Of a stretch of 62,023 bases of DNA, positions 6,062 to 19,360 are shown piece by piece. The notes beneath the pieces are model-generated. The model saw only the letters and a list, made by a program, of their open reading frames with translations, was not told where the DNA came from and did no database searches. The stretch is taken from NCBI GenBank assembly GCA_019119355.1, contig DWXE01000011.1:1-62023 (forward strand), read 5' to 3'. Each line of letters begins with the position of its first letter. The stretch's first letter is position 1. The stretch is from Candidatus Eisenbergiella merdigallinarum. Lineage in GTDB: Bacteria; Bacillota; Clostridia; Lachnospirales; Lachnospiraceae. The translations under genes and the position numbers were made by a program.

Positions 6062-7216
6062 ATGAAATTTTTTCATCTTTCCGATCTTCATATCGGGTTG
6101 AAGCTGTTCAACCGGGATTTGAAGGAAGATCAGGAATATATTCTGAAACGGATCGCGGATCTTGCGGAACGGGAGCGGCCGGACGCCGTGGTGGTGGCCG
6201 GGGACATCTACGACAGGGCGGTCCCGTCGGGGGAAGCGGTGGAGGTGTTCGACCATTTTATCGCGGATCTGACGGACAGGCTTCCCGGCGCGTCGATCAT
6301 GCTGATCAGCGGGAATCACGACAGTGGCGCCAGGCTGAACTGTTTTCGGAGCGTGCTGGCCAGGCAGAACGTGCACATGATCGGCATGCCGCCCCAGACA
6401 AAGGAAGAGCATATGGAAAAGGTATCCCTGAAGGATGCGTACGGGACCGTGAATTTTTATCTGCTTCCCTTCGTCCGGCCTTCCATGGTGAAAAAGGTGC
6501 TGGAAGAGGAGGAAGGGGAAGGCGGGCTGTCCTACGACGAAACGGTGCGCAGGCTGATCGCCAGGGAGACCGTGGATCCGGCGGAGAGAAACGTGCTGGT
6601 GAGCCATCAGTTTTACCTTCCGGCCGGGAAAAGGGCGGAAGAGGTGGAGCGGATGGATTCGGAGATCCGCACGGTGGGGAACATCGACGAAGTGTCGGCG
6701 GATGTGCTGGAACCCTTCGACTACGCGGCGCTGGGGCACATCCACAAGCCCATGCGCGCGGGAGGAGAGCGCTACCGGTACTGCGGCACTCCCCTGGCCT
6801 GTTCCGTCAGCGAGGCGGGGCAGCAAAAGGGCGTGATTCTGGTGGAGCTGCGGGAAAAAGGGGAGATTCACACCGAAGTCCTGCCGTTAGAGCCCCTGCG
6901 CCGGATCCGGGTGATCCGGGGGACGCTGGAAGAGGTGGCGGGCCAGGGCTGCGGCGACTACGTGACGGCGGTGCTGACGGACGGGGAAGGCCGGGACGGG
7001 ATGGAAGCGCAGGACCGACTCCGCCGCGCCTTTCCCAACCTGCTGGAAATCCGCAGGGAAACGGCGCGCAGGGCGGATTACGGGCATGCCCCTTCGGCTT
7101 TGGGCGAGCCGGATCCCTTCGAGCTGTGCTGCGCCTTTTTAAAGGATGCCGGCGAAGAAGAACGGGAAATTCTGAAGGAAGTGATCAACGCAGTCCGGGA
7201 GGTGAAACGGGGATGA
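6062..7216 (+). CDS. sbcD: Exonuclease SbcCD, nuclease subunit SbcD
   Basis: A 384-residue Mre11-type phosphoesterase. The metal-binding motifs are intact: SDLHIG near the N-terminus, then GDIYDR, ISGNHDSG and LGHIHKP. With SbcC it forms the ATP-dependent double-strand exonuclease and hairpin endonuclease that processes palindromes, cruciforms and protein-blocked DNA ends. Its TGA overlaps the sbcC start (ATGA), so the two subunits are translationally coupled. Confidence 0.95.
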   Translation: MKFFHLSDLHIGLKLFNRDLKEDQEYILKRIADLAERERPDAVVVAGDIYDRAVPSGEAVEVFDHFIADLTDRLPGASIMLISGNHDSGARLNCFRSVLARQNVHMIGMPPQTKEEHMEKVSLKDAYGTVNFYLLPFVRPSMVKKVLEEEEGEGGLSYDETVRRLIARETVDPAERNVLVSHQFYLPAGKRAEEVERMDSEIRTVGNIDEVSADVLEPFDYAALGHIHKPMRAGGERYRYCGTPLACSVSEAGQQKGVILVELREKGEIHTEVLPLEPLRRIRVIRGTLEEVAGQGCGDYVTAVLTDGEGRDGMEAQDRLRRAFPNLLEIRRETARRADYGHAPSALGEPDPFELCCAFLKDAGEEEREILKEVINAVREVKRG

Positions 7217-10200
7217 GACCGCTGAAATTGACCATGCAGGCGTTCGGATCCTATGGGAAAAGGACGACCATCGATTTCACGAAGGCCGATCAGAATCTTT
7301 TTTTGATCGCGGGTAATACCGGAGCGGGCAAGAGCACGATTTTCGACGCCATCGCATTCGCGCTCTACGGGGAGGCCAGCTCCGGCCTGAACAAAAAGGA
7401 CGGGACGGAGCTGCAGAGCCAGTTTTCAGCCAGCGGAACGGAGCCTTTTGTGGAGCTCGTCTTTTCGGAGGACAACGGGGCGTATCCGGAAGGGAACGAA
7501 TATACGGTGCGCAGGGTTCCCCGGCATGTGCGGCCCCTGAAACGGGGGCAGGGGACGAAGGAAGAGAGCGAATCCGTGTCTTTGCTGATGCCGGACAAAA
7601 CGGAATATCCCCGAAAGGAGACGGATGAAAAGATCCGGGAGCTGGTGGGGCTGACGAAAAATCAGTTCATGCAGGTGGCCATGATCGCACAGGGCGAATT
7701 CATGGAGCTGCTCCGGTCCAAATCCGACGAGAAGAGGGAAATTTTCCGCAGGCTGTTCCACACGGAGCTGTATCGGGATATCGTGGACGAGCTGGGGCGG
7801 CGCCGCAGGGAAAACCAGCGGGAGATGGCGCAGATCTGTGCGGTATGCCGGACGGAAGCCGCGCATGTGGCGATTCCGGAAGAATATGAAAACGCGGGCC
7901 TTTTGGAGAAGCTGAAGGAGGAGGTCGTGGGGACGGAGCCGTTTTCGTCCGGAGCGATGGAGGAGTTTCTTCAGGAGCTGGCGGCGGCGCGCGGCTGGCT
8001 GGAGGGGAAGAAGAGCGCGGCGCAGGCGGAGCAGGAAGCGGCGGAGGCCTTTTATCTGGAAAAGCGGGAAGCCGTGTCCGGGGCCCGGGAGCTCTTAACC
8101 CGTTTTGAAGAACTGGAACGGGCGCAAAAAGAGCTGGAAGAATGCGCGGCCGTTGAGGAAGAGATGCGGGAAAATCTCCGGCTGGCGGCTCAAATCCGGG
8201 CGGCCTGGGAGATCCGGTCCGTCTTTTTGCGCTGTCAGGACAGCGCGGACCGGCTGGCGAACGTTCAAAAGGAACTGGAGAACCGGCGGGAAAAGAAGCC
8301 GCGGTGGGAACAGGAAGCGGCGCAGGCCCGGAAACGGGAGGAAGAGGCCCGGGAGCTTTGGGAAAAAGAGGCACAGCGCTGCGCCGCCGTATCCCAGAAG
8401 GCGAATCGGGCCCTGGAGAACTTCGCCAGGAAGCGGGAAGCGGAGGCGGACGCACGGCGGAAAGAGGAAGCGGCCCGCCGGGCGGAGGAAAACAGGGAGG
8501 CCGCCCGGAAAAGGCTGTCGGATCTGGAAGATATGGAAGCGGGCTGGAGGAAGCGGGAAGCCGATCTGGAGGACGCGCCTGCCGGGCAGGAGCGGTGGAA
8601 GGCGGAGAGCGCCGAAAAGTCCGGCCTGGAAGCGGATCTGTCCGCGCTGGAAGGGCTGGAGCGCGGGGCGAAGGACCGGCGCCGGCAAGCGGAAGCCGCG
8701 CAGGAGGCCTACGCAAGAGCCAGCGCGGCATACGAACAGAAAAATGCGGAGTACGAAGGGGCCCGTCGGGACTTTTTGAACGCTCAGGCGGGATTTCTGG
8801 CCAGGGAGCAGCTCAGGGAGGGGAAGCCCTGCCCGGTCTGCGGATCCCTGGATCATCCCAGCCCCTGCCGGCTGGAGGAGGGAAACGGGATATTGAGCCG
8901 GGAAGCCCTGGAGGAGTTGGGGGATGCGGCAAACCGCCTGCGGGACGGACAGGAACGGGCCGCCGCAAAGGCCCATGCGGCCCGGGAGGTGGCTGCGGAG
9001 CAGGAAAAACGCCAAAAGGAGGCGGACGGAGCGTTCCGGAAGCGCATGAAGGAAGCGGCAGCCAGGTTCGGTTTTTCCCGGGATTTTGGCGGAGATGCTT
9101 CCGCCGGCCCGGAGCCGGTCGGGATTTCGGCCCGGGCCGCGCTGGCGGGCTGGGGCCGGTCCCTGGAAGCCCGGGGCCGGGCGCTGCGGGAGGAGCTGCA
9201 GGAGCTGGAGCGGGTGAGAAACGATCTGGCGGGAGCGAAGGAGCGCCGGGAGGAGATGAAGGCGGAAGCCGACCGCATGGAGGAAGCAGCCGCGAACGCC
9301 CGGGCCGCTCTGGAGCGCAGCCGGGCCGCCCTGGAAAGCCTGTCGGTTTCCGGGGACTATTCCGACGAAGGAGAGGCCCGGGCCGCGCTGGAGAGGGCCC
9401 AGCGGGGGCTGGAGGAAAAGAAGGAAGGCGCGGACAGGGCCCAGCGGGAATCCGGGGAAGCCGGCGCCCGCCTGGAAAATGTCAAAGCCCTGATCCGGCG
9501 CTATGAGCAGGAGATTCCGGGGCTGGAAGAGGAATGGAATCAGCGGAGACGGGAGTACGAAGCCGTCCTGGAAGAAAAGGGAATGGACGAGGCCGGATGG
9601 AAGCTTTTCACCCAACGGTATGAGCCCGGCAGAGCCGATGCGTTTCAGAACGCCGCAGACGCCCACCGGCAGAAGAGAGCGGCGGCCGGGCGCCTTTTGG
9701 ACGCCGCGCAAAAGGCGGTGGAGGGCAGGGAGCGCCCCGATCTCGCAAAACTTACGGCAGCTCAGGAGGAAGCGCAGCGGCGGCGGGACGCCGCCCGGGA
9801 GCGGACGGAGCGGATCCGGGAGGTTTTTGGCGCAAACGACCGGGCGTATCGGGCGCTGGCGCCGAAGATGAAGGAGAGCGGCGCTCTCATGGCGCGGTAT
9901 CAGCGCATCAGCGGCATGTACGATCTTTTGGCGGGAAACGTGTCCGGCTCCCGGATGGATATCGAGACGTTTGTGCAGCGCCGCTATCTGGAACGGATTC
10001 TGGAGCGGGCCAACCGGAGGTTCGGGGAGATGTCTGCCGGGCAGTTCGAGCTGCGCCTGCGGGATCTGGAGAGCGCGGGAATCGGGAAAAACAGAGGGCT
10101 GGATCTGATGGTCTATTCCTCCGTGACGGGAAAGGAGCGGGAAGTGCGCACGCTATCCGGCGGGGAGTCGTTCATGGCCGCGCTTTCGCTGGCCCTGGGG

Positions 10201-10446
10201 ATGGCGGATCAGATTCAGGAGAGTTCTTCTGCGGTTCATCTGGACATGATGTTTATCGACGAGGGCTTCGGCTCCCTGGACGAGCATTCCAGGGATCAGG
10301 CCGTCCGCGTTTTGCAGGAAATGGCCGGCGGATCGAAGCTCATCGGAATCATTTCCCACGTCACGGAGCTGAAACAGGAAATCGAGGATCAGCTGATCGT
10401 CACCAGGGACGACGAGGGGAGCCATGTGAGATGGCAGATCAGTTGA
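7213..10446 (+). CDS. sbcC: Exonuclease SbcCD, ATPase subunit SbcC
   Basis: A 1077-residue SMC/Rad50-like ATPase. The order is Walker A (GNTGAGKSTIF, about residue 38), a long coiled coil, the zinc hook CPVCG at about residue 539 in the centre, a second coiled coil, then the signature RTLSGGESF and Walker B (MMFIDEGFGSLDE). ATG 7213 overlaps the sbcD stop; longer upstream reading-frame extensions are out-of-gene. The coding strand is extremely Arg/Glu/Ala-rich, producing long spurious frames on both strands. The cas3 gene begins only 13 bp downstream, so sbcDC and cas3 are likely co-transcribed. Confidence 0.95.
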   Translation: MRPLKLTMQAFGSYGKRTTIDFTKADQNLFLIAGNTGAGKSTIFDAIAFALYGEASSGLNKKDGTELQSQFSASGTEPFVELVFSEDNGAYPEGNEYTVRRVPRHVRPLKRGQGTKEESESVSLLMPDKTEYPRKETDEKIRELVGLTKNQFMQVAMIAQGEFMELLRSKSDEKREIFRRLFHTELYRDIVDELGRRRRENQREMAQICAVCRTEAAHVAIPEEYENAGLLEKLKEEVVGTEPFSSGAMEEFLQELAAARGWLEGKKSAAQAEQEAAEAFYLEKREAVSGARELLTRFEELERAQKELEECAAVEEEMRENLRLAAQIRAAWEIRSVFLRCQDSADRLANVQKELENRREKKPRWEQEAAQARKREEEARELWEKEAQRCAAVSQKANRALENFARKREAEADARRKEEAARRAEENREAARKRLSDLEDMEAGWRKREADLEDAPAGQERWKAESAEKSGLEADLSALEGLERGAKDRRRQAEAAQEAYARASAAYEQKNAEYEGARRDFLNAQAGFLAREQLREGKPCPVCGSLDHPSPCRLEEGNGILSREALEELGDAANRLRDGQERAAAKAHAAREVAAEQEKRQKEADGAFRKRMKEAAARFGFSRDFGGDASAGPEPVGISARAALAGWGRSLEARGRALREELQELERVRNDLAGAKERREEMKAEADRMEEAAANARAALERSRAALESLSVSGDYSDEGEARAALERAQRGLEEKKEGADRAQRESGEAGARLENVKALIRRYEQEIPGLEEEWNQRRREYEAVLEEKGMDEAGWKLFTQRYEPGRADAFQNAADAHRQKRAAAGRLLDAAQKAVEGRERPDLAKLTAAQEEAQRRRDAARERTERIREVFGANDRAYRALAPKMKESGALMARYQRISGMYDLLAGNVSGSRMDIETFVQRRYLERILERANRRFGEMSAGQFELRLRDLESAGIGKNRGLDLMVYSSVTGKEREVRTLSGGESFMAALSLALGMADQIQESSSAVHLDMMFIDEGFGSLDEHSRDQAVRVLQEMAGGSKLIGIISHVTELKQEIEDQLIVTRDDEGSHVRWQIS

Positions 10447-10459
10447 GGAGGGGAAGGGT

Positions 10460-12625
10460 ATGGAAAAAGATTATCTCGCGCATGTGAGCCGGGACGGGAG
10501 CCGCGAGCAGTCCGTCAGGGAACATCTGGAAGGGACGGCGCGGCTGGCGGAACGGTTCGCGCAATCCTTCGGAAAAGGCGATTGGGGTTACTGCTGCGGT
10601 CTGCTTCACGATATTGGGAAGTACTCTTTCGCCTTTCAGGAGAGGATCCGTGGAAGAAACGACAGAAAAGTGGATCACGCCACGGCCGGAGCGCAGCTGT
10701 GCTTTCAACTGGGGGAACTGTATGAAGCGCTGAGCTATTGCATCGCCGGGCATCACGCGGGACTTCCGGATTACGGTAGCAGCGCGGATACGGGAAACAG
10801 CCCGAGCCTCATGGGAAGGCTGCGAAAGAAGGTGGAACCATATGAGGGATATCGGGAAGAGATCGAGGTCCCTGCTCTGGTCTCCGAGCCTTTTGACCGC
10901 GAAACGGGGCCGGATTTCGATTTTTCCTTCAGTTCTTTTATCCGGATGATGTATTCCTGCCTCGTGGACGCGGATTTCCTGGATACGGAAGCGTTTATGG
11001 AAGACGGAAAAACGCTGCGGGATCCGGGAGAGAAGCCGGAGCAGCTTTTTCGAAAGCTGGAAGAGCATATCCGGGATTGGCTGAAAAACGGGGACAGGGA
11101 TACGATAAACGGGCGGAGGACGGAGATCCTCAGGCATTGTCTGGCGTGCGGGGCCATGGAACGGGGCCTGTTTCGCCTGACCGTGCCCACCGGAGGGGGA
11201 AAGACCATAGCGTCGCTGGCTTTCGCCCTGCGCCATGCGGCGGAAAATGATATGGACCGGGTGATCTATGTGATCCCGTACACCAGCATCATCGAGCAGA
11301 ACGCCGGGATATTCCGGAAGATTCTCGGGGAAAAAAACGTGCTGGAGAATCATTGCAACGTGGATTATGACGGCTGCGATCCGAAGAGAGCGGAGGAGTT
11401 GAGACCGATACAGCTGGCGGCGGAAAACTGGGATAAGCCCGTCGTGGTGACGACGAACGTACAGTTTTTTGAATCCTTATTTTCCAATCGGTCTTCCAGG
11501 TGCAGAAAGCTGCACAATATCGCCAACAGCGTTATCGTGTTCGACGAGGCGCAGATGCTGCCGAACGATTATCTCAGGCCATGTATCGCGATAATGGAGG
11601 AGCTGTTGGACCATTATCGAACCAGCATCGTCCTGTGCACGGCCACGCAGCCCGCGCTGTCCGGTTTTTTTAAAAAGGAAAGGAAAGCGACGGAATTGTG
11701 CCCGCGGACAGAAGAGCAGTTTCGCTTTTTTGAACGCGTCACTTTCCGGAATATCGGTACGGTGTCGGAGAAGGAACTGGCCTGCAGGCTGGAATCCATG
11801 CCCTGCGTCCTCTGTATCGTGAATACCAGAAGAAGGGCCCAGAATCTTTATCAGTATCTGAAAGGGGAAGGAGTGTTCCATCTCTCCACGTCCATGTACC
11901 CGGAGCATCGCCGCCGCGTTTTAGAGCGGATCAGGAAGCGGCTCGAAGATGGGGAGAGATGCGTGCTGATTTCTACCAGCCTTGTGGAAGCGGGGGTGGA
12001 TCTGGATTTTGGAGCCGTGTACAGGGAACTGGCCGGGGCGGACTCCATCATCCAGGCTGCCGGCCGATGCAACCGGGAAGGAAAGCGGAAAAAGGAGGAG
12101 AGCCCGGTGACCGTTTTTCGTTTCGAAGACGGGAAACCCGCGTTGGGGCAGAGACAACCCATCGACGTGACGAAAGCGCTGCTGGCCAGCGGCGTGGACA
12201 TCGCCTCCCGGGAAGGCATCGAAAAATATTTTTCCGGCCTGTATCATATCCGGGGAGAGAGCCTCGATAAAAAGAAGATCCTTGCGGACTTTCGAAACTG
12301 CAGATATGATTTCGCCACGGCAGCCAGGGATTTTCGTCTGATCGAAGAGAAGACGGTCACTCTGTTGATCCCTGTTGAGGATGAAGCGAAGGAACTTTTG
12401 ACACAGATTCAACGCTGCGGTTGTACGAAAAGCGGAATGCGCAGGGCCGGCCGATACTGCGTTTCGGTGGATGAGAGGGAGATCAAAACGCTGTATGGCG
12501 CCGGAATGGCCGTGCCGGTGTCCGGAGAAGCGAAGGATTTTTGGGCGCTGACGGAAGAATCGCGGTATACCGAAGAGATGGGAATGAATCTGGAAGCGGT
12601 GAACGGAATGGGAATTTTGTGGTAG
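10460..12625 (+). CDS. cas3: CRISPR-associated helicase/nuclease Cas3 (type I-C, HD-fused)
   Basis: A 721-residue Cas3 with an N-terminal HD nuclease (LLHDIGKYS at about residue 49, VDHATAG near 73, GHHAG near 97) and an SF2 helicase (Walker A VPTGGGKT near 240, DEAQ near 360, the STSLVEAGVD and QAAGRCNREG motifs of the C-terminal RecA fold). It is recruited to target-bound Cascade and degrades the non-target strand. It is the first cas gene and lies 13 bp after sbcC, but is separated from cas5 by 406 bp containing its own regulatory structures. Length and order are normal for type I-C. Confidence 0.97.
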   Translation: MEKDYLAHVSRDGSREQSVREHLEGTARLAERFAQSFGKGDWGYCCGLLHDIGKYSFAFQERIRGRNDRKVDHATAGAQLCFQLGELYEALSYCIAGHHAGLPDYGSSADTGNSPSLMGRLRKKVEPYEGYREEIEVPALVSEPFDRETGPDFDFSFSSFIRMMYSCLVDADFLDTEAFMEDGKTLRDPGEKPEQLFRKLEEHIRDWLKNGDRDTINGRRTEILRHCLACGAMERGLFRLTVPTGGGKTIASLAFALRHAAENDMDRVIYVIPYTSIIEQNAGIFRKILGEKNVLENHCNVDYDGCDPKRAEELRPIQLAAENWDKPVVVTTNVQFFESLFSNRSSRCRKLHNIANSVIVFDEAQMLPNDYLRPCIAIMEELLDHYRTSIVLCTATQPALSGFFKKERKATELCPRTEEQFRFFERVTFRNIGTVSEKELACRLESMPCVLCIVNTRRRAQNLYQYLKGEGVFHLSTSMYPEHRRRVLERIRKRLEDGERCVLISTSLVEAGVDLDFGAVYRELAGADSIIQAAGRCNREGKRKKEESPVTVFRFEDGKPALGQRQPIDVTKALLASGVDIASREGIEKYFSGLYHIRGESLDKKKILADFRNCRYDFATAARDFRLIEEKTVTLLIPVEDEAKELLTQIQRCGCTKSGMRRAGRYCVSVDEREIKTLYGAGMAVPVSGEAKDFWALTEESRYTEEMGMNLEAVNGMGILW

Positions 12626-12638
12626 GTTGCCCGGATGT

Positions 12639-12688
12639 CGCAGGGGCGGCGTCAAAGCTGAAAAATGTGCTTTGACGCCGCCCCTGCG
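12639..12688. repeat. Perfect 20-bp inverted repeat after cas3
   Basis: Arms at 12639-12658 and 12669-12688 are perfectly complementary over 20 bp around a 10-nt loop (TGAAAAATGT). There is no T-run on either side, so it is not a classical intrinsic terminator. It sits 13 bp after the cas3 stop. On the minus strand it forms the 3' part of the predicted guide RNA. It could terminate, stabilise or process transcripts from both directions. Confidence 0.7.
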
Positions 12689-12741
12689 CTCTGCGCTTAG
12701 ATCAAATATCAGTATTTCAATCCACAGGTTTTCCCTGACAT
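12639..12741 (-). ncRNA. Candidate crRNA-like self-regulating guide (CreR/CreA-type)
   Basis: Minus-strand RNA predicted to start at about 12741. In transcript order it contains a degenerate CRISPR repeat hairpin, the exact 11-nt type I-C crRNA handle TGGATTGAAAT (12724-12714), a spacer-like segment beginning ACTGATATTTGATC (from 12713), and a 20-bp hairpin at its 3' end. The first ten spacer nucleotides match the plus-strand site at 12808-12817 except at position 6, and that site has a TTC PAM. This is the layout of CreA/CreR guides, which direct Cascade to a promoter through seed-only pairing. The exact ends and expression are inference. Confidence 0.7.
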
Positions 12742-12745
12742 GAAA
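12714..12745 (-). repeat. Solitary degenerate CRISPR repeat (pseudo-repeat)
   Basis: Read on the minus strand, the last 12 nt (GTGGATTGAAAT) are identical to the 3' end of the array repeat. The upstream part has diverged, but it still forms a hairpin, CAGG-GAAAA-CCTG (12737-12725). Its 5-nt loop and its 3' base at G12725 are at the position where Cas5 of type I-C cleaves (after G21 of the 32-nt repeat). So the structure and handle are conserved while the stem sequence is not. Confidence 0.75.
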
Positions 12746-12747
12746 AC

Positions 12748-12776
12748 AGTATAACAAATCGGAGGATTGACTTCAA
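12748..12776 (-). promoter_or_regulatory. Promoter of the guide RNA
   Basis: On the minus strand, TTGAAG (12776-12771), a 17-bp spacer and TATACT (12753-12748). The predicted start, an A at 12741, lies four nucleotides upstream of the pseudo-repeat hairpin, so transcription would begin exactly at the functional RNA. Confidence 0.6.
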
Positions 12777-12804
12777 ACGGTAATAAAATGATGAAACTAT
12801 AGAT

Positions 12805-12842
12805 TTCACTGAAATTTATCTAACAATAATATGATTTGTATT
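12805..12842 (+). promoter_or_regulatory. Predicted Cascade-binding site (PAM plus seed match) in the cas5 promoter
   Basis: TTC (12805-12807), the type I-C PAM, is followed by ACTGAAATTT (12808-12817), which matches the guide at positions 1-5 and 7-10. The rest of the 35-nt window is largely unmatched, as in CreR/CreA targets where pairing is limited to the seed so that binding occurs without cleavage. The footprint reaches 12842 and would cover the -35 element of the downstream promoter. Confidence 0.65.
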
Positions 12843-12869
12843 GCTTTCGTGGCGGAGATATAGTATAAC
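12836..12869 (+). promoter_or_regulatory. Promoter(s) of the cas5-cas2 operon
   Basis: Two overlapping sigma-A matches, each with a 17-bp spacer: TTGTAT (12836-12841) with TATAGT (12859-12864), and TTGCTT (12841-12846) with TATAAC (12864-12869). This is the only promoter-like sequence seen between cas3 and cas5, and it abuts the predicted Cascade-binding site. Confidence 0.55.
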
Positions 12870-12883
12870 AATAGTATACAACA

Positions 12884-13009
12884 ATGAATTATCTGAAGAA
12901 ACTGTATGAAGTATTTTATTTTCAGAAAGAAAGGGTAGCTTTCATACGGTTTCAGCCGCGGGACTACATCGCGGAATGCTACAGAGAAGGGAGGGTACTG
13001 GAAGGATGA
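12884..13009 (+). CDS. Possible 41-residue leader or small cas-operon protein
   Basis: An open frame beginning MNYLKKLYEVFYFQ and ending EGRVLEG lies between the cas promoter and cas5. It starts only 8-13 nt after the predicted transcription start and lacks a recognisable Shine-Dalgarno. Inside it, 12898-12910 and 12941-12953 form a 13-bp stem (one G-U) with a 30-nt loop. It is Lys/Tyr/Phe-rich and resembles no protein I know. It could be a leader peptide, a CreT-like toxin guarded by the guide RNA, or non-coding leader sequence. Confidence 0.3.
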   Translation: MNYLKKLYEVFYFQKERVAFIRFQPRDYIAECYREGRVLEG

Positions 13010-13031: not shown

Positions 13032-13694
13032 ATGGGAATGGGTGTAAAGGTCAGGGTATGGGGGGATTATGCCCTGTTTTCCCGGCCGGAGATGAAGGTG
13101 GAGCGGTGCTCCTACGATGTGATGACCCCGTCGGCAGCCAGAGGAATTCTGGAAGCCATCTTCTGGCATCCGGGGCTGAAATGGGTCGTCGATAAAATTT
13201 ATGTCAAAAAACCGATCCGGTTTACCAGCGTGCGGAGAAACGAGGTCAAGAGCAAGATTTTGGCCAGCAACGTGCTCCAGGTTTACAACGGAGCGAAGAA
13301 GCCGCTTTACATAAGCGGCAGATCCGACATTGTCCAGAGGGCGTCGCTGCTTTTATGCGATGTGGAATATGTGATCGAAGCCCATTTCGAGATGACGGAC
13401 AGGGCCAACGCCACGGACAACCCTGGGAAATTTAAGGACATCGTGATGCGGCGTTTGAAGCGGGGAGAATGCTATCATATGCCCTACTTCGGGTGCAGGG
13501 AGTTTCCGGCTCATTTCTGTTTGTGTGAGGAAGAAGAAATCAGGACCGCATATGACGGGATTGAGGAGAAGGACCTGGGATACATGCTGTACGATCTGGA
13601 TTACTCGGATCCGGAAAATCTGCAGCCCATGTTTTTCAGAGCCGTCCTGAAACGGGGCGCGCTGGATCTGAAGGACTGCGAGGTGGTACGATGA
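13032..13694 (+). CDS. cas5c: Cas5c (Cas5d), crRNA-processing endonuclease of type I-C
   Basis: A 220-residue protein with the type I-C Cas5 pattern: an N-terminal RAMP strand (VKVRVWGDYALFSRPE), SYDVMTPSAARGILEAIFW, and the C-terminal RGECYHMPYFGCREF motif. In subtype I-C, which lacks Cas6, this protein cleaves the repeat at the base of its hairpin to leave an 11-nt 5' handle and then stays in Cascade. ATG 13032 follows AGGAGG (13021-13026) by 5 nt. It overlaps cas8c by 4 bp. Confidence 0.96.
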   Translation: MGMGVKVRVWGDYALFSRPEMKVERCSYDVMTPSAARGILEAIFWHPGLKWVVDKIYVKKPIRFTSVRRNEVKSKILASNVLQVYNGAKKPLYISGRSDIVQRASLLLCDVEYVIEAHFEMTDRANATDNPGKFKDIVMRRLKRGECYHMPYFGCREFPAHFCLCEEEEIRTAYDGIEEKDLGYMLYDLDYSDPENLQPMFFRAVLKRGALDLKDCEVVR

Positions 13695-15421
13695 TCTTAC
13701 AGGCGCTGACGGAATACTATGAAAATCTGGCGGAACAGGGAGAGGTATCCCGGGAGGGATGGTGCCGGGCAAAGGTTTCCTGGGCGGTCAATCTGTCCGG
13801 GGATGGGAAGATTCTCGGGATTATTTCTTTGAAACGGGAAGAGGAACGGGGGAAAAAGAAGATAGCGGTACCGGCATCCCTGACCGTCCCGGAAATGGTC
13901 ACCCGTTCTTCCGGCGTTTCGGCGAATTTTCTGTGCGATAATTCGAAATATCTCCTCGGCATTGATGCGCAGGGGACGAACAGGAGGATTCTGGATTGCT
14001 TTCAGGCCGCGAAGGAAAAACATCTGCGGCTGCTGGAAGGGGTGGAGGGAGAAATGGCCCGGGCTCTCCGGCTGTATTTTGAAAGCTGGGATCCCCAAAA
14101 AGCGGCCGACTGTGCCGAAATCCGGGAAAACTGGGACGATGTGACGGATGGAGGAAATCTGATTTTTTGTCAGGGCACGGACTATGCTCAGGACGATCCG
14201 GCGATTCGGAAAGCGTGGGAACGGGAGAAAAACGGCGCGGCCGGAGGGCCGGAAGGGATCTGTCTGGTGACCGGGAAAAGGGAGGAAATCGCGAGGATTC
14301 ATCGGGGGATCAAAGGAGTGCCCGGCGCCCAGTCCAGCGGGGCCGCACTGGTTTCCTTCAACGCTCCGGCCTTTGAATCTTACGGAAAGGAGCAGAGTTA
14401 TAACGCCCCGGTGGGAAAGTATGCGGAATTCGCCTATACCACTGCGCTGAACGATCTGTTGAGCCACAGGGAATATACGTTTCAGCTGGGAGATACCACG
14501 GTCGTTTTCTGGGCGGGGAGTGCAGAACGCGTATATCAGAGGACGTTTTCCCTGTCGGCGGCTCCGGGGCGGGACAACCAGGAAGAGTTGAAGGGAATTT
14601 TTGAAAACCTGAAATGCCACAGGCCGATCCGGGTGGAAGGGGTGGAGCTGAATCCGGAGCAGAAGTTTTATATTCTGGGGCTGGCGCCCAATGCTGCCCG
14701 GTTGTCGGTGCGCTTTTTTCACCAGAATTCCTTTGGGAATATTCTGGAAAATCTTGCCAGGCACTATCGGAGGATGGAGATGATTAAACCGGCCTGGGAG
14801 GACAGGGAATATCTGGGGATTCGGGAGATGTTGTTCGAAACGGTGAATCAGAAATCCAGGGAAAAATCTCCGATTTCCAGCATGGCGGCCATGGTTTTGC
14901 AGGCGATCCTTCAGGGAAGCAGATATCCGGCAAGCCTTTATACGGATACGCTGATCCGGATCCGGGCGGAACAGGGAACGGTCACGTGGGGAAGGGCAGG
15001 GATCGTGAAGGCATTTTTGATTCGAAATTACGGATGGGAGAAGGGAGAAAATTACATGGGAATCAATGAGGACAGCAAAGAAGTGGCGTATGTGCTGGGA
15101 CGGCTGTTTTCCGTGTTGGAGTCGATTCAGAAGGATGCGAATCCCACGATCAACGCTACGATTCGGGACCGCTATTTCAATTCGGCCTGCACCACGCCGG
15201 TTTCGGTATTCCCGATTTTGATCCGGCTGAAAAACAGCCATATGAAGAAGCTGGAACGGGAAAAAGCCAGCGCCAAACCGTATTATGAAGGGCTGCTGGG
15301 AAAGTTGATGGAAAATCTGACCGCATTTCCGGCGCGTTTATCGCTGGAGGAGCAGGGGCAGTTTATTTTGGGGTATTATCATCAGACGCAGAAAAAGTAT
15401 GAAAAACGGGAGGAAAAATAA
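13691..15421 (+). CDS. cas8c: Cas8c (Csd1), large subunit of type I-C Cascade
   Basis: A 576-residue protein with the Csd1 N-terminus (MILQALTEYYENLAEQG) and the usual length. It is the PAM-recognising large subunit of the I-C effector. In this subtype an internal start within cas8c typically also yields the small subunit Cas11c, so no separate cas11 gene is expected; I could not identify that internal start with confidence. It overlaps cas5c by 4 bp and abuts cas7c directly. Confidence 0.96.
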   Translation: MILQALTEYYENLAEQGEVSREGWCRAKVSWAVNLSGDGKILGIISLKREEERGKKKIAVPASLTVPEMVTRSSGVSANFLCDNSKYLLGIDAQGTNRRILDCFQAAKEKHLRLLEGVEGEMARALRLYFESWDPQKAADCAEIRENWDDVTDGGNLIFCQGTDYAQDDPAIRKAWEREKNGAAGGPEGICLVTGKREEIARIHRGIKGVPGAQSSGAALVSFNAPAFESYGKEQSYNAPVGKYAEFAYTTALNDLLSHREYTFQLGDTTVVFWAGSAERVYQRTFSLSAAPGRDNQEELKGIFENLKCHRPIRVEGVELNPEQKFYILGLAPNAARLSVRFFHQNSFGNILENLARHYRRMEMIKPAWEDREYLGIREMLFETVNQKSREKSPISSMAAMVLQAILQGSRYPASLYTDTLIRIRAEQGTVTWGRAGIVKAFLIRNYGWEKGENYMGINEDSKEVAYVLGRLFSVLESIQKDANPTINATIRDRYFNSACTTPVSVFPILIRLKNSHMKKLEREKASAKPYYEGLLGKLMENLTAFPARLSLEEQGQFILGYYHQTQKKYEKREEK

Positions 15422-16333
15422 ATGAAGGAAGCGATCAAAAACAGATACGAATTCGTAATTTTGTTCGACGTGGAAAACGGGAATCCGAACGGGGATCCGG
15501 ATGCGGGCAATATGCCCAGAATCGATCCGGAAAGCGGTCTGGGGCTGGTGACGGACGTTTGCCTGAAACGGAAAATCCGGAACTATGTGGAAACCGTGAA
15601 GGAAGGCGAAAAGGGATTTCAGATATATATCAGGGAGGATGTCCCGCTGAACAGAAGCGACAGAGGGGCATGTGAAACGCTGGGAATTGCGGAAACGGAC
15701 GATAAAAAGCTGACGGAGGAGCTCAAGAAGCTCAAAAAGAGCGATCCGGACGTGGATTTGAAACTGAGAAACTATATGTGCGAAGAATTTTATGATGTCC
15801 GGACCTTCGGCGCCGTCATGACGACGTTTGTGAAGGCAGCGCTCAACTGCGGTCAGGTGAGGGGACCGGTCCAGCTGGGGTTTGCCAGAAGCATCGATCC
15901 GATTGTCAGCCAGGAAGTGACGATCACCAGAGTTGCCATTACCACGGAAAAGGATGCGGAAAATAAGAGCACGGAAATGGGGAGAAAGAACATCGTTCCC
16001 TATGGATTGTATCGGGCGGAGGGCTATGTGTCCGCAAACCTGGCCAGAAAGGTGACGGGATTTTCCGGGGAGGATCTGGAACTGTTGTGGGAGGCAATTT
16101 TGAATATGTTCGAAATCGACCATTCGGCAGCGCGGGGAAAAATGGCCGTCCGCGAGCTGATCGTTTTCAGGCACAGCAAAGAGCTGGGAGACTGTCCCGC
16201 CTATAAGCTGTTCGACGCGGTGGAAGTCAGGAGAAAGGATGGCGTGGAATATCCGAGAAATTATCAGGATTATTCCGTCTGCGTGCATGAGGAAAATATT
16301 CCCGATTCCGTGGAAGTGAAAAGGATGGCATGA
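15422..16333 (+). CDS. cas7c: Cas7c (Csd2), backbone subunit of type I-C Cascade
   Basis: A 303-residue RAMP-fold protein with the Csd2 hallmark NGNPNGDPDAGNMPR near residue 18 and the downstream VRTFGAVM and GPVQLGFARSIDPI segments. Multiple copies form the helical backbone that binds the crRNA spacer; the backbone kinks every sixth nucleotide, which is why position 6 of a seed need not match. ATG 15422 immediately follows the cas8c TAA. Confidence 0.96.
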   Translation: MKEAIKNRYEFVILFDVENGNPNGDPDAGNMPRIDPESGLGLVTDVCLKRKIRNYVETVKEGEKGFQIYIREDVPLNRSDRGACETLGIAETDDKKLTEELKKLKKSDPDVDLKLRNYMCEEFYDVRTFGAVMTTFVKAALNCGQVRGPVQLGFARSIDPIVSQEVTITRVAITTEKDAENKSTEMGRKNIVPYGLYRAEGYVSANLARKVTGFSGEDLELLWEAILNMFEIDHSAARGKMAVRELIVFRHSKELGDCPAYKLFDAVEVRRKDGVEYPRNYQDYSVCVHEENIPDSVEVKRMA

Positions 16334-17010
16334 TGGGAGAGTATTCGGAAGACGATTATCTGATGATCTCCGGAATACAGCATTTCAGGTTTTGCAGAAG
16401 ACAGTGGGCCCTGATCCATATCGAGCAACAGTGGGCGGAAAATGAGCATACCGCTGTGGGCGGACTGATGCACAAAAAAGTTCACGATCCCAGCCTGACA
16501 GAAAAGCGGAAAGGCGTCATCGTGGCAAGGGCCCTTCCCGTGGTTTCCAGAAAAATGGGAATCAGCGGGGAGTGCGATGTGGTGGAATTTCGATCCAGTG
16601 AAGACGGGATCAGACTGTACGGGCATCGGGGGCTGTATTCCATTTATCCTGTGGAGTATAAGAAGGGAAAGCCGAAAGTGGAGGATGAGGATCGGCTGCA
16701 GCTGGCGGCACAGGCGATGTGCCTGGAGGAAATGTTTTCGGCTGAAGTACCGGAAGGGGCTCTGTTCTACGGAGAAACAAGGCGCAGGGAAGCCGTGGAG
16801 ATCGACGGGGCCCTCCGGGAAGAGGTGCGCGCCATGTTTCGCGAAATGCACGGATATTATGAGAGGAGATATACTCCAAAAGTGAAATACAGCAAGGCCT
16901 GCAGCGCCTGCTCTCTGAAGGATATCTGTCTGCCCGGGCTCGGGAAATCCGTTTCCGCAAAGGAATATATCAGGAGGATATTGGAGGAAGGGGAGGAAGT
17001 GACGATATGA
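16330..17010 (+). CDS. cas4: Cas4, RecB-like adaptation nuclease
   Basis: A 226-residue RecB-family nuclease with an iron-sulfur cluster. An N-terminal Cys (FRFCRRQW), a GECDVVEF metal site, the VEYKKGKPK motif with catalytic Glu/Lys, and the C-terminal cluster CSACSLKDIC are visible. Together with Cas1-Cas2 it trims prespacers and enforces PAM orientation. It is embedded between cas7c and cas1, with 4-bp overlaps on both sides, as is normal for I-C. Confidence 0.95.
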   Translation: MMGEYSEDDYLMISGIQHFRFCRRQWALIHIEQQWAENEHTAVGGLMHKKVHDPSLTEKRKGVIVARALPVVSRKMGISGECDVVEFRSSEDGIRLYGHRGLYSIYPVEYKKGKPKVEDEDRLQLAAQAMCLEEMFSAEVPEGALFYGETRRREAVEIDGALREEVRAMFREMHGYYERRYTPKVKYSKACSACSLKDICLPGLGKSVSAKEYIRRILEEGEEVTI

Positions 17011-18038
17011 AAAAGCTGCTGAACACGCTGTATGTTGCTTCCGATAACGGGTATCTGGCCCTGGATGGAGAGAATGTCGTGCTTCTGGAGGGAGACAGGG
17101 AAGCGGGCCGGCTCCCCCTTCATAATCTCGAAGGGATCGTTTCGTTCGGATATCGGGGGACCAGCCCGGCTCTGATGGGAGCCTGCATGGATCGAAATAT
17201 TTCCCTGTGTTATCTCACTCCGCAGGGAAGATTTCTTGCCAGGGTTTCCGGGAGAACCAGGGGAAACGTAATTTTGAGGCAGCAGCAGTACGATGCTGCC
17301 AGAGAGGAAGAAAAGAGCCTTGAAATCGCGAAGAACTGTATCCTGGGGAAAGTGCATAATGCGAGATGGGTGCTGGAACGGGCCGTGAGGGATCATCGGA
17401 TGCAGATCGATGCGGACCGGGTGAAGGCGGCTGCGGATTTTCTGAAACATTCCACGGGGTATATTGCGGGCTGTCGGACGAAAGAACAGCTTCGGGGATA
17501 TGAAGGGGAAGCGGCCAGCATTTATTTCGGCGTTTTCGACGAATTGATCCTGCAGCAGAAGAAGGATTTCTTTTTTGAAGGGCGAAGCAAAAGGCCTCCG
17601 ACGGATCCGGTAAACGCGATGTTATCATTTGTCTATACGCTGCTGGCGAATCAGATTACCTCGGCGCTGGAATGCGTGGGATTGGACCCGTATGTAGGAT
17701 ATCTGCACACGGACCGCCCCGGGAGGGCTTCGCTGTCGCTGGACCTGATCGAAGAACTTCGGGCGGTTCTGGCGGATCGATTCGTTTTGTCGCTGATCAA
17801 CAAAAGAATCGTAACGGGGAAGAATTTTACCCGCAAGGAAAACGGCGCGGTGCTGATGGACGATGAGCTGAGAAAGAGGGTGCTGGCGGAGTGGCAGAAT
17901 CGAAAAAAAGAAACGTTAACCCATCCCTATCTGGGAGAAAAGATCGAATGGGGGATGGTCCCGTTTGCGCAGGCGATGCTGCTGGCCAGATATCTGAGGG
18001 GCGATCTGGACGCTTATCCGGTGTTTTTGTGGAAGTGA
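17007..18038 (+). CDS. cas1: Cas1, CRISPR integrase
   Basis: A 343-residue protein of I-C type. The metal ligands expected for Cas1 are visible as the Glu in GYEGEAASIYF (about residue 163), the His in VGYLHTDRPGR (about residue 230) and the acidic LDLIEELR segment. With Cas2 it integrates prespacers at the leader-proximal repeat. It overlaps cas4 by 4 bp. Confidence 0.96.
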   Translation: MKKLLNTLYVASDNGYLALDGENVVLLEGDREAGRLPLHNLEGIVSFGYRGTSPALMGACMDRNISLCYLTPQGRFLARVSGRTRGNVILRQQQYDAAREEEKSLEIAKNCILGKVHNARWVLERAVRDHRMQIDADRVKAAADFLKHSTGYIAGCRTKEQLRGYEGEAASIYFGVFDELILQQKKDFFFEGRSKRPPTDPVNAMLSFVYTLLANQITSALECVGLDPYVGYLHTDRPGRASLSLDLIEELRAVLADRFVLSLINKRIVTGKNFTRKENGAVLMDDELRKRVLAEWQNRKKETLTHPYLGEKIEWGMVPFAQAMLLARYLRGDLDAYPVFLWK

Positions 18039-18065: not shown

Positions 18066-18356
18066 ATGCTTGTTCTGATTACATATGATGTCAATACGGA
18101 GACGGCAGCGGGAAGGGCAAGGCTGCGCAAGGTAGCGAAACAGTGCGTGAATTATGGAAGGAGGGAACAGAATTCCGTATTCGAATGTATTTTGGATAAC
18201 GCTCAGTGCGTTATGCTGAAGGCCGTTTTGACGGAGCTGATCGATGAAAACACGGATAGCCTGCGCTTTTACTACCTCGGAAACAAATACCATACAAAGG
18301 TGGAGCATGTGGGCGTGGACAGGGGAGTCGCCGCTGACGGGGTGTTGATTTTTTAG
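18066..18356 (+). CDS. cas2: Cas2, CRISPR adaptation protein
   Basis: A 96-residue ferredoxin-fold protein with the typical start MLVLITYDVNTETAAGRARL and the NSVFECILD strand. It forms the dimeric core between two Cas1 dimers. It has a strong Shine-Dalgarno (AAGGAGG) 27 bp after cas1 and is the last gene before the leader and array. Confidence 0.96.
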   Translation: MLVLITYDVNTETAAGRARLRKVAKQCVNYGRREQNSVFECILDNAQCVMLKAVLTELIDENTDSLRFYYLGNKYHTKVEHVGVDRGVAADGVLIF

Positions 18357-18653: not shown

Positions 18654-19288
18654 GTCGTCCCCTACGCGGGGACGTGGATTGAAATGCTTTCCAGGTGGAC
18701 AGGGAAGCGTCCATTGACAGTCGTCCCCTACGCGGGGACGTGGATTGAAATTGAACAATCGATCCCGGCAGCAGTCCGCACAGATGTCGTCCCCTACGCG
18801 GGGACGTGGATTGAAATCCCGAACCGGATCACCTGGCTGTTGGTGCCGCCGGTCGTCCCCTACGCGGGGACGTGGATTGAAATAGCCTCAATTATGCACG
18901 CTATCGGCGTCCCGGACGTCGTCCCCTACGCGGGGACGTGGATTGAAATTGCAAATCCCAAAATACAGTATCCAGGCAGCAGTCCCGTCGTCCCCTACGC
19001 GGGGACGTGGATTGAAATCCAGGATATCGCAAAGGCTATCCGGTACAAACCTAGTCGTCCCCTACGCGGGGGACGTGGATTGAAATATAGCCTGGTCCAT
19101 ATCTGTGGCGCTTTTTACAGCGTCGTCCCCTACGCTGGGGACGTGGATTGAAATCTCTTCTGGTGTCAGGCGGATCTGGCACACTTCGTGTCGTCCCCTA
19201 CGCGGGGACGTGGATTGAAATTCTGTCACTCCGCCTCGCCCTCCTGTCCTGCTCGGTCGTCCCCTACGCGGGGGATGCGGATAGAGAT
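18654..19288 (+). CRISPR. Type I-C CRISPR array, 10 repeats and 9 spacers
   Basis: The 32-bp repeats start GTCGTCCCCTACGCGGGG and end GTGGATTGAAAT. They begin at 18654, 18720, 18786, 18852, 18918, 18987, 19054, 19122, 19190 and 19256. Spacers are 34, 34, 34, 34, 37, 35, 35, 35 and 34 nt. Repeats 1-6 and 9 are identical; repeat 7 has one extra G, repeat 8 an extra T, and repeat 10 (19256-19288) has an extra G and several changes at its 3' end. The decayed copies lie at the leader-distal end, which fixes the orientation. A further TTGAAAT at 19335-19341 may be a relic. Confidence 0.97.
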
Positions 19289-19360
19289 AGCTGTTCTTCC
19301 GGCAGCAATACCATCGTTGCGTCCGGAAGGAGCGTTGAAATCGAAACTATAAAAACGGCG

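What the first reader, a model, noticed from the sequence alone, without database searches (positions are those of the whole stretch)
12639..12842. A crRNA-like guide in the cas3-cas5 gap appears to direct type I-C Cascade to its own operon promoter
Four independent features line up. (1) A minus-strand promoter, TTGAAG-N17-TATACT, starts an RNA at about 12741. (2) The RNA begins with a solitary degenerate CRISPR repeat whose sequence has drifted, but which keeps a 5-nt-loop hairpin ending at the cleavage position and the exact 11-nt handle TGGATTGAAAT that Cas5c produces. (3) The adjacent spacer-like sequence ACTGATATTT matches the plus-strand site ACTGAAATTT at 12808-12817 in 9 of 10 positions. 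The only mismatch is position 6, the base type I Cascade flips out, and the site has the TTC PAM of subtype I-C. (4) That 35-nt site ends on the -35 element of the only visible cas5 promoter. Pairing stops after the seed, as required for repression without cleavage. A TTC plus a 9/10 match by chance in a 400-bp gap is very unlikely. CreA/CreR-type RNAs are known for some type I and V systems; whether this I-C case is described I cannot tell.
Basis: partly seen in the sequence, partly recalled or inferred. Interest (0 to 1): 0.95.

Follow-up and report, generated by a model that had tools for sequence, protein, structure and literature searches.

The report
CRISPR guide targeting its own promoter
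Between the cas3 and cas5 genes of this bacterium's type I-C CRISPR locus lies one worn CRISPR repeat followed by a short guide that matches the DNA just in front of the cas5 operon, and 47 related loci carry their own matching guide-target pairs, so the CRISPR complex is likely used to turn down its own genes.

Summary
On the minus strand a promoter-like sequence precedes one degenerate I-C repeat (hairpin 12725-12737, handle TGGATTGAAAT 12724-12714) and the guide ACTGATATTTGATCTAA. On the plus strand TTC (12805-12807) precedes ACTGAAATTTATCTAA. Within the window alone this is modest (permuted guides reach it in 0.4% of trials); relatives make it decisive. Of 80 cas5c loci, 37 carry such a guide within 1450 bases before cas5 (40 sham handles: mean 0.125 loci, maximum 1); 4 more carry one further upstream. 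All 38 guides tested (37 plus the window) have a TTC-flanked match of at least 9/10 seed positions; permuted guides give 0.34 loci. Pairing covers positions 1-5, 7-11 and, less strictly, 13-17, is at background at 6, 12 and 18, and ends there: the Cascade flip-out pattern. Targets lie on predicted promoters. It works like a CreR (reviewed for I-B, I-E, V-A), here in I-C and with a single repeat. In 19 of 38 loci a DUF3990 two-gene cassette (PDC-M10) stands between target and cas5; the window keeps only a fragment. No transcript or repression was tested.

The parts
12771..12776 (-). -35-like element TTGAAG of the guide gene
   Evidence: sequence; picked as best promoter pair
12748..12753 (-). 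-10-like element TATACT of the guide gene, 17 nt from the -35
   Evidence: sequence
12725..12737 (-). hairpin of the degenerate repeat, CAGG-GAAAA-CCTG, ending at the expected Cas5c cut
   Evidence: an abutting stem of 4 bp or more in 34 of 38 guide loci against 11.3% of background positions
12714..12724 (-). 11-nt handle TGGATTGAAAT, identical to the canonical array repeat
12697..12713 (-). guide, nt 1-17 (ACTGATATTT G ATCTAA)
12639..12688 (-). inverted repeat of 20 bp with 10-nt loop on the 3' side of the guide; terminator-like but without a T-run on the guide strand
   Evidence: fold
12805..12807 (+). TTC, PAM of the target
   Evidence: the best-matching site is TTC-flanked in 38 of 38 loci
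12808..12823 (+). target: block 1 ACTGAAATTT (12808-12817), block 2 ATCTAA (12818-12823, one-base offset)
12836..12841 (+). -35-like element TTGTAT of the predicted cas5-operon promoter
12859..12864 (+). -10-like element TATAGT of the predicted cas5-operon promoter
12875..13000 (+). fragment of a PDC-M10B-like gene (matches M10B residues 104-150, 36% identity, E 8e-4)
10460..12625 (+). cas3, 14 nt after an sbcC-like gene and upstream of the guide-targeted promoter
13032..13694 (+). cas5c
13691..15421 (+). cas8c
15422..16333 (+). cas7c
16330..17010 (+). cas4
17007..18038 (+). cas1
18066..18356 (+). cas2
18654..19287 (+). canonical CRISPR array, repeat GTCGTCCCCTACGCGGGGACGTGGATTGAAAT

Best explanation
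The minus strand between cas3 and cas5 carries one degenerate I-C repeat and a guide of about 17 nt that matches, behind TTC, the predicted promoter of cas5-cas8-cas7-cas4-cas1-cas2, and it is predicted to load into the locus's own Cascade and repress that promoter without cutting. Shown by sequence and comparison: repeat-like hairpin, exact array handle, TTC, pairing at 1-5, 7-11 and more loosely 13-17 with free 6, 12 and 18, recurrence with covarying target in relatives. Inferred: the promoters, transcription from about 12741, Cas5c cleavage at 12725/12724, Cascade loading (the 3' stem standing in for the next repeat's hairpin), steric block of the -35, no Cas3 destruction because pairing ends at nt 17. 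The likely use is feedback: when crRNAs or anti-CRISPRs take Cascade away, the operon is derepressed. In the window cas3 lies upstream of the target and would escape this control. In half of the guide loci the PDC-M10 gene pair stands between target and cas5 and would then rise together with Cascade; the window has lost it but kept guide and target, so its guide would serve cas regulation alone.
For: Automated scan of 80 cas5c loci: the real handle gives 37 loci with a TTC-flanked match of 9/10 or better, 40 sham handles give mean 0.125, maximum 1; the real handle also occurs more often (111 against a mean of 35), which scales the sham figure to about 0.4. 38 of 38 guides (37 plus window) against a permuted-guide mean of 0.34, maximum 3, in 1000 rounds; match 100% at 1-5, 26% at 6, 84-100% at 7-11, 16% at 12, 55-84% at 13-17, 18% at 18, then background; swapped guide-target pairs reach only 29-53% at 2, 4, 7, 8, 10 and 11. 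Among 238 pairs of loci with 3 or fewer guide seed differences, 555 changes are on both sides, 18 guide only, 99 target only; 35 distinct 11-nt guides. Promoter geometry in two classes. Guides upstream of cas3 in 3 loci and displaced by an insertion in L041; guides outside the family in 5 loci. All I-C genes above their family cut-offs. Experimental precedent in type I-B: H. hubeiense CreA needs 1-5 and 7-11 and not 6 or 12, PAM TTC (PMC8501985, passages).
Against: No RNA or repression data exist here. The window guide is weaker than most: position 11 mismatched, second block offset by one base, no T-run behind the 3' stem. The predicted fold of the window RNA pairs the handle with part of the guide, which could hide the seed. 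39 of 80 loci show no guide in the searched stretches; 4 of them are cut by the contig end directly before cas5, but 13 have more than 150 nt before cas5 by the ORF measure and still none, so the guide is dispensable. 2 of 38 loci have no clear hairpin and 2 have one that ends one base early. Swapped pairs already reach 67-90% at 1, 3, 5 and 9, and position 17 (55%) is no better than swapped (50%). Target regions are AT-rich, which raises chance matches (controlled). The 10 guides have no sham control of their own. Counts over pairs of loci are not independent events.
Confidence: 0.86

Rival explanations
1. The guide is first of all an RNA antitoxin (CreA of a CrePA-like module): its purpose is to keep the PDC-M10 DUF3990 gene silent as long as Cascade works, and the window is a relic that lost the toxin-like gene.
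For: 19 of 38 guide loci carry both M10 genes between target and cas5 and 3 more (window included) keep pieces; the window's nearest cas5c relatives on the tree, L032 and L030, have the cassette; DUF3990 is listed in the Pfam ART clan (PMC7955679, passage) and its model resembles RES toxins of RES-Xre pairs, weakly (Foldseek E 2.4e-3, probability 1.0, TM about 0.5).
Against: 16 of 38 guide loci have no M10 trace, and none of the 6 extra loci has one in the stretch held. In L053 M10 is present and no guide was found. M10A relatives occur in 48 of 116 genomes, and 29 of the 30 fetched M10A loci show no such guide. In M10-bearing loci both uses may hold at once. Toxicity of M10 is not shown.
Confidence: 0.25
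2. A decayed immune mini-array: one leftover repeat and a spacer that happens to match the locus, without function.
For: The repeat is degenerate and solitary; a single locus alone would allow it (0.4% by permutation).
Against: Covarying guide and target in 38 of 38 loci with handle, TTC and 6-nt periodicity kept, and a hairpin in 34 to 36.
Confidence: 0.03
3. A solitary repeat acting as a decoy for Cas5c or Cascade (Racr-like) or a long-form tracr-like repressor, not through the guide match.
For: Solitary repeat with handle; Racrs are described as solitary repeat units of viral genomes (PMC10651486, start of abstract in the listing).
Against: A decoy needs no match to the cas promoter, yet every guide tested has one; the unit lies in the cas locus, not in a phage.
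Confidence: 0.03

Closest known systems
CreR, cas-regulating RNA (Liu et al. 2023, Cell Host Microbe, doi 10.1016/j.chom.2023.08.005; not held; known here from review passages)
   Same: crRNA-like RNA of the cas locus, limited match to the cas promoter, predicted Cascade-bound autorepression
   Different: One review names I-B, I-E and V-A; here I-C, with a single repeat, an inverted repeat on the 3' side and, in half of the guide loci, a DUF3990 gene pair between target and cas5
CreA of CreTA (Halobacterium hubeiense, H. hispanica, type I-B; PMC8501985, passages)
   Same: TTC, seed 1-5 and 7-11, positions 6 and 12 not needed, degenerate repeat
   Different: CreA represses an RNA toxin gene and mostly has two degenerate repeats; the window target is the predicted cas5 promoter and only one repeat was found
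CrePA (Shu et al. 2025, doi 10.1038/s41589-024-01693-3; seen only through PMC12737573, section 3.3, and a passage of PMC13131331)
   Same: guide-Cascade repression of a protein-toxin promoter would apply to the M10-bearing relatives
   Different: Reviewed CreP typically has a KilA-N domain; here a DUF3990 pair inside the cas locus, reduced to a fragment in the window
Racr RNA anti-CRISPR (PMC10651486, start of abstract in a listing)
   Same: solitary repeat unit
   Different: virus-borne repeat mimic; a promoter match is not part of what was seen of it

Membership tests
CreR | degenerate CRISPR repeat with the subtype's handle beside its cas operon | tested here: met
CreR | PAM-flanked limited complementarity to the cas promoter | tested here: met
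   the promoter itself is predicted
CreR | guide and target coevolve (added by me as a test of function) | tested here: met
CreR | transcribed, processed, Cascade-bound | not testable with these tools
   no RNA data
CreR | represses cas expression | not testable with these tools
   needs a reporter
CreR | generally no coupled toxin gene (as reviewed in PMC12737573) | tested here: inconclusive
   only a fragment in the window, none in 16 of 38, complete M10 pair in 19 of 38; M10 is not shown to be toxic
CreA of CreTA | two flanking degenerate repeats (most members) | tested here: not met
   one handle copy at the window guide; an inverted repeat follows instead; a second repeat decayed beyond the handle test would be missed
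CreA of CreTA | target promoter drives an RNA toxin | tested here: inconclusive
   what follows is the M10B fragment and cas5; a tiny RNA toxin gene cannot be excluded by sequence
CrePA | protein toxin gene, typically KilA-N, under the targeted promoter | tested here: not met
   window has only an M10B fragment; the relatives scanned have DUF3990 (two loci)
Racr | carried by a virus or other mobile element | tested here: not met
   lies between cas3 and cas5 of a complete I-C gene set

The most novel reading that the evidence does not exclude
Clostridial type I-C operons are run by a self-addressed one-repeat guide that sets Cascade levels and, in half of the guide loci, at the same time gates a RES/ART-like toxin pair written into the cas locus: a single switch that would both rearm Cascade and trigger abortive infection when an anti-CRISPR disables it, with the window a lineage that dropped the toxin arm and kept the thermostat.
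Probability: 0.4. Interest if true: 0.88.

Novelty: new variant of a known kind. Interest (0 to 1): 0.74.

Why it matters
It would extend RNA-guided Cas autorepression to subtype I-C, with a large natural set of guide-target pairs (48 loci with the window) that reads out the Cascade pairing rule, including flip-outs at 6, 12 and 18 and one-base offsets near position 12. It gives a directly testable account of how the I-C operon keeps itself low and how it would react to anti-CRISPRs, and links a candidate defence pair (PDC-M10) to CRISPR control.

Tried and rejected
Rfam gathering scan of the window: 0 matches. The small ORF before cas5 was first taken as a possible leader peptide; it proved to be a fragment related to M10B. 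PADLOC and Pfam on the M10 pair: DUF3990/PDC-M10A and PDC-M10B; M10B has no Pfam match and no fold match below E 1.8. M10A loci elsewhere were checked for guides of the same kind: of the 30 loci L112-L141 only L112, which is the L002/L045 locus itself, has one; whether those M10A genes stand beside cas genes was not tested (L118 lies about 2 kb from a cas5 hit). A second genome match of TTC plus seed was followed and lies inside a coding region. L031 and L033 hits are self-overlaps inside cas3 and were not counted. The automatic promoter pick puts the -35 at +20 to +35 in 20 of the 30 plus-orientation targets and elsewhere in 10; by eye 29 of 30 have a TTG...TATA-type pair with the -35 at +20 to +35, and L059 has it at +59; the eye count is mine and not a script's. 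L041 was first taken as a guide upstream of cas3; a check put cas3 at 692-2830 and the guide behind it, with an insertion between target and M10. The 3' inverted repeats have no background control. Paper searches; in the listings and passages seen no paper describes a CreR in I-C, but the primary CreR paper is not held and the CrePA paper was not looked up, so an I-C example in them cannot be excluded.

Full report
What is there. Between cas3 (ends 12625) and cas5c (starts 13032) the minus strand carries TTGAAG-N17-TATACT, then a hairpin CAGG-GAAAA-CCTG, then TGGATTGAAAT, then ACTGATATTTGATCTAAGCGC, then a 20-bp inverted repeat. TGGATTGAAAT is the exact 3' end of the commonest repeat of the canonical array downstream of cas2. 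On the plus strand TTC 12805-12807 is followed by ACTGAAATTTATCTAAC. The first ten guide bases match except at position 6. The I-C genes cas3, 5, 8, 7, 4, 1 and 2 are all recognised above family cut-offs (cas3 by its two domain models).

Chance in the window. Shuffling the first 11 guide bases and rescanning the stretch between guide and cas5 on both strands gives a TTC-flanked match of 9/10 or better in 0.4% of trials. The seed with TTC occurs at one other place in the 2.8-Mb genome, inside a 449-aa ORF on another contig; the same pattern read backwards also hits once. So the window alone is suggestive, not decisive.

Relatives. A scan of species genomes with a cas5c alignment returned the best 80 of 380 loci, mostly Lachnospiraceae and other Clostridia by record title. 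I listed handle-like motifs, chose 37 minus-strand candidates by eye, and found that each has its best site in its own gap behind TTC. An automatic version without hand choice, both strands, 1450 bases before cas5, gives the same 37 of 80; forty sham handles of the same composition give 0.125 on average and at most 1. The real handle occurs 111 times there, sham handles 35 times on average, so the fair sham figure is about 0.4. With the window, 38 of 38 guides have a match of 9/10 or 10/10 at positions 1-5 and 7-11; permuted guides give 0.34 loci on average and at most 3 in 1000 rounds. There are 35 different 11-nt guides. L030 and L032, close relatives, differ at guide positions 1, 4 and 11 and their targets differ in the same way.

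Pairing rule. Over the 38 pairs, positions 1-5 match in all, 6 in 26%, 7-11 in 84-100%, 12 in 16%, 13-17 in 55-84%, 18 in 18%, and from there on the level of swapped pairs. Swapped pairs reach 67-90% at 1, 3, 5 and 9, where all loci are alike, but 29-53% at 2, 4, 7, 8, 10 and 11; position 17 (55%) is not above swapped (50%). That is the pattern expected if every sixth base is flipped out, and it ends after three blocks. Block 13-17 matches at 4 or 5 of 5 in register in 25 of 38 loci; in 7, the window included, it matches better displaced by one base, and in L037 by one in the other direction. The same seed rule with TTC was shown by mutation for H. hubeiense CreA, where bases 6 and 12 did not matter (PMC8501985, passages).

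Repeat and 3' end. A stem of 4 bp or more abuts the handle in 34 of 38 loci against 11.3% of background positions; two more end one base early and two have none. Arms vary while pairing is kept (CAGG/CCTG, CTGG/CCAG, CAGA/TCTG, CAGC/GCTG and longer ones). In the window no second handle follows; an inverted repeat of 9 to 20 bp was found in the scanned stretch behind every guide, without a background control. In the window it lacks a T-run, so termination there is a guess. The predicted fold of the window RNA pairs handle bases with guide bases, a point against easy loading.

Target position. In 30 of the 38 loci the target is on the plus strand; the script puts the -35 of the next promoter at +20 to +35 of the protospacer in 20 of 30, and by eye it is there in 29 of 30, L059 being the exception. 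In 8 the target is on the minus strand with the PAM downstream and the protospacer running back towards the -10. Either way Cascade would lie on the predicted promoter. Four further of the 80 loci carry a guide and TTC-flanked target beyond the first stretch: in L055, L088 and L095 upstream of cas3, in L041 behind cas3 but separated from M10 and cas5 by an insertion. So 41 of 80 loci have a guide. Of the 39 others, 4 are cut by the contig end directly before cas5, and 13 have more than 150 nt before cas5 and still none. Class- and phylum-wide searches added L142, L143, L147, L148, L155 and L171, 6 loci beyond the L001-L003 duplicates among 86 loci examined with a looser handle, five of them outside the family, all with minus-strand targets; only the 30 best loci of each search were fetched. 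In total 48 loci with the window; the 10 loci have no sham control of their own.

The M10 cassette. In 19 of 38 guide loci two genes lie between the target and cas5: DUF3990 (Pfam PF13151, PADLOC PDC-M10A) and a second protein (PDC-M10B), named from L045 and L039. L056 keeps M10B, L065 broken pieces, and the window a fragment of M10B at 12875-13000 (36% over 47 residues, E 8e-4); 16 have no trace, nor have the 6 extra loci. DUF3990 is listed in the ART clan (PMC7955679, passage), and the model of M10A (mean pLDDT 82, the other four models 52 to 77) is nearest to RES toxins at E 2.4e-3, a weak match. M10A relatives occur in 48 of 116 genomes, and 29 of 30 fetched M10A loci show no guide of this kind. 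On a cas5c tree the window sits among M10-bearing loci, with weak support, so loss of the cassette with retention of the guide is the simplest reading.

How it most likely works. Inferred: the RNA is made from about 12741, Cas5c cuts at the hairpin base, Cascade carries the 17-nt guide to 12805-12823, covers the -35 at 12836-12841 and lowers transcription of cas5 to cas2; pairing is too short for Cas3 to destroy the site. In the window cas3 follows an sbcC-like gene by 14 nt and lies upstream of this promoter, so effector and nuclease would be controlled apart. When Cascade is drawn off by array crRNAs or blocked by an anti-CRISPR, the promoter opens. In M10-bearing relatives the pair would be induced at the same moment. 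TTC as the I-C PAM and the 11-nt Cas5c handle are recalled, not from a call.

Known or new. Reviews held here describe CreR for I-B, I-E and V-A (PMC13131331, passage) or for type I and V-A in general (PMC12737573, passages). The primary paper is not held. Nine searches (not all aimed at I-C) listed no I-C case that I saw. I rate it a new variant of a known kind: same principle, new subtype as far as seen, one repeat, and a link to a DUF3990 pair.

Noticed in passing
12875-13000: Fragment of a PDC-M10B-like gene directly before cas5; complete M10A-M10B pairs stand there in 19 of 38 guide loci.
   Followed up: yes
6062-10446: sbcD and an sbcC-like gene run directly into cas3 (14 nt apart), so cas3 may be expressed with a DNA-repair operon and apart from the effector genes.
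   Followed up: partly
19054-19298: The far repeats of the canonical array carry an extra base (19054, 19122) or are degenerate (19256); the nearer ones are identical over the repeat.
   Followed up: no
L030-L109, guide nt 11-12: One-base offset of the third pairing block in 7 of 38 loci (and the opposite offset in L037), at the second flip-out position; may say how Cascade tolerates bulges.
   Followed up: partly
L053, L055, L041: M10 cassette follows cas3 without a promoter gap (L053, L055) or stands behind a transposase-like insertion (L041); L055 has its guide upstream of cas3, L041 between cas3 and the insertion, L053 none found.
   Followed up: partly
G000:C10:100877-101350: A distant DUF3990 relative with an internal stop elsewhere in the window's own genome.
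   Followed up: no
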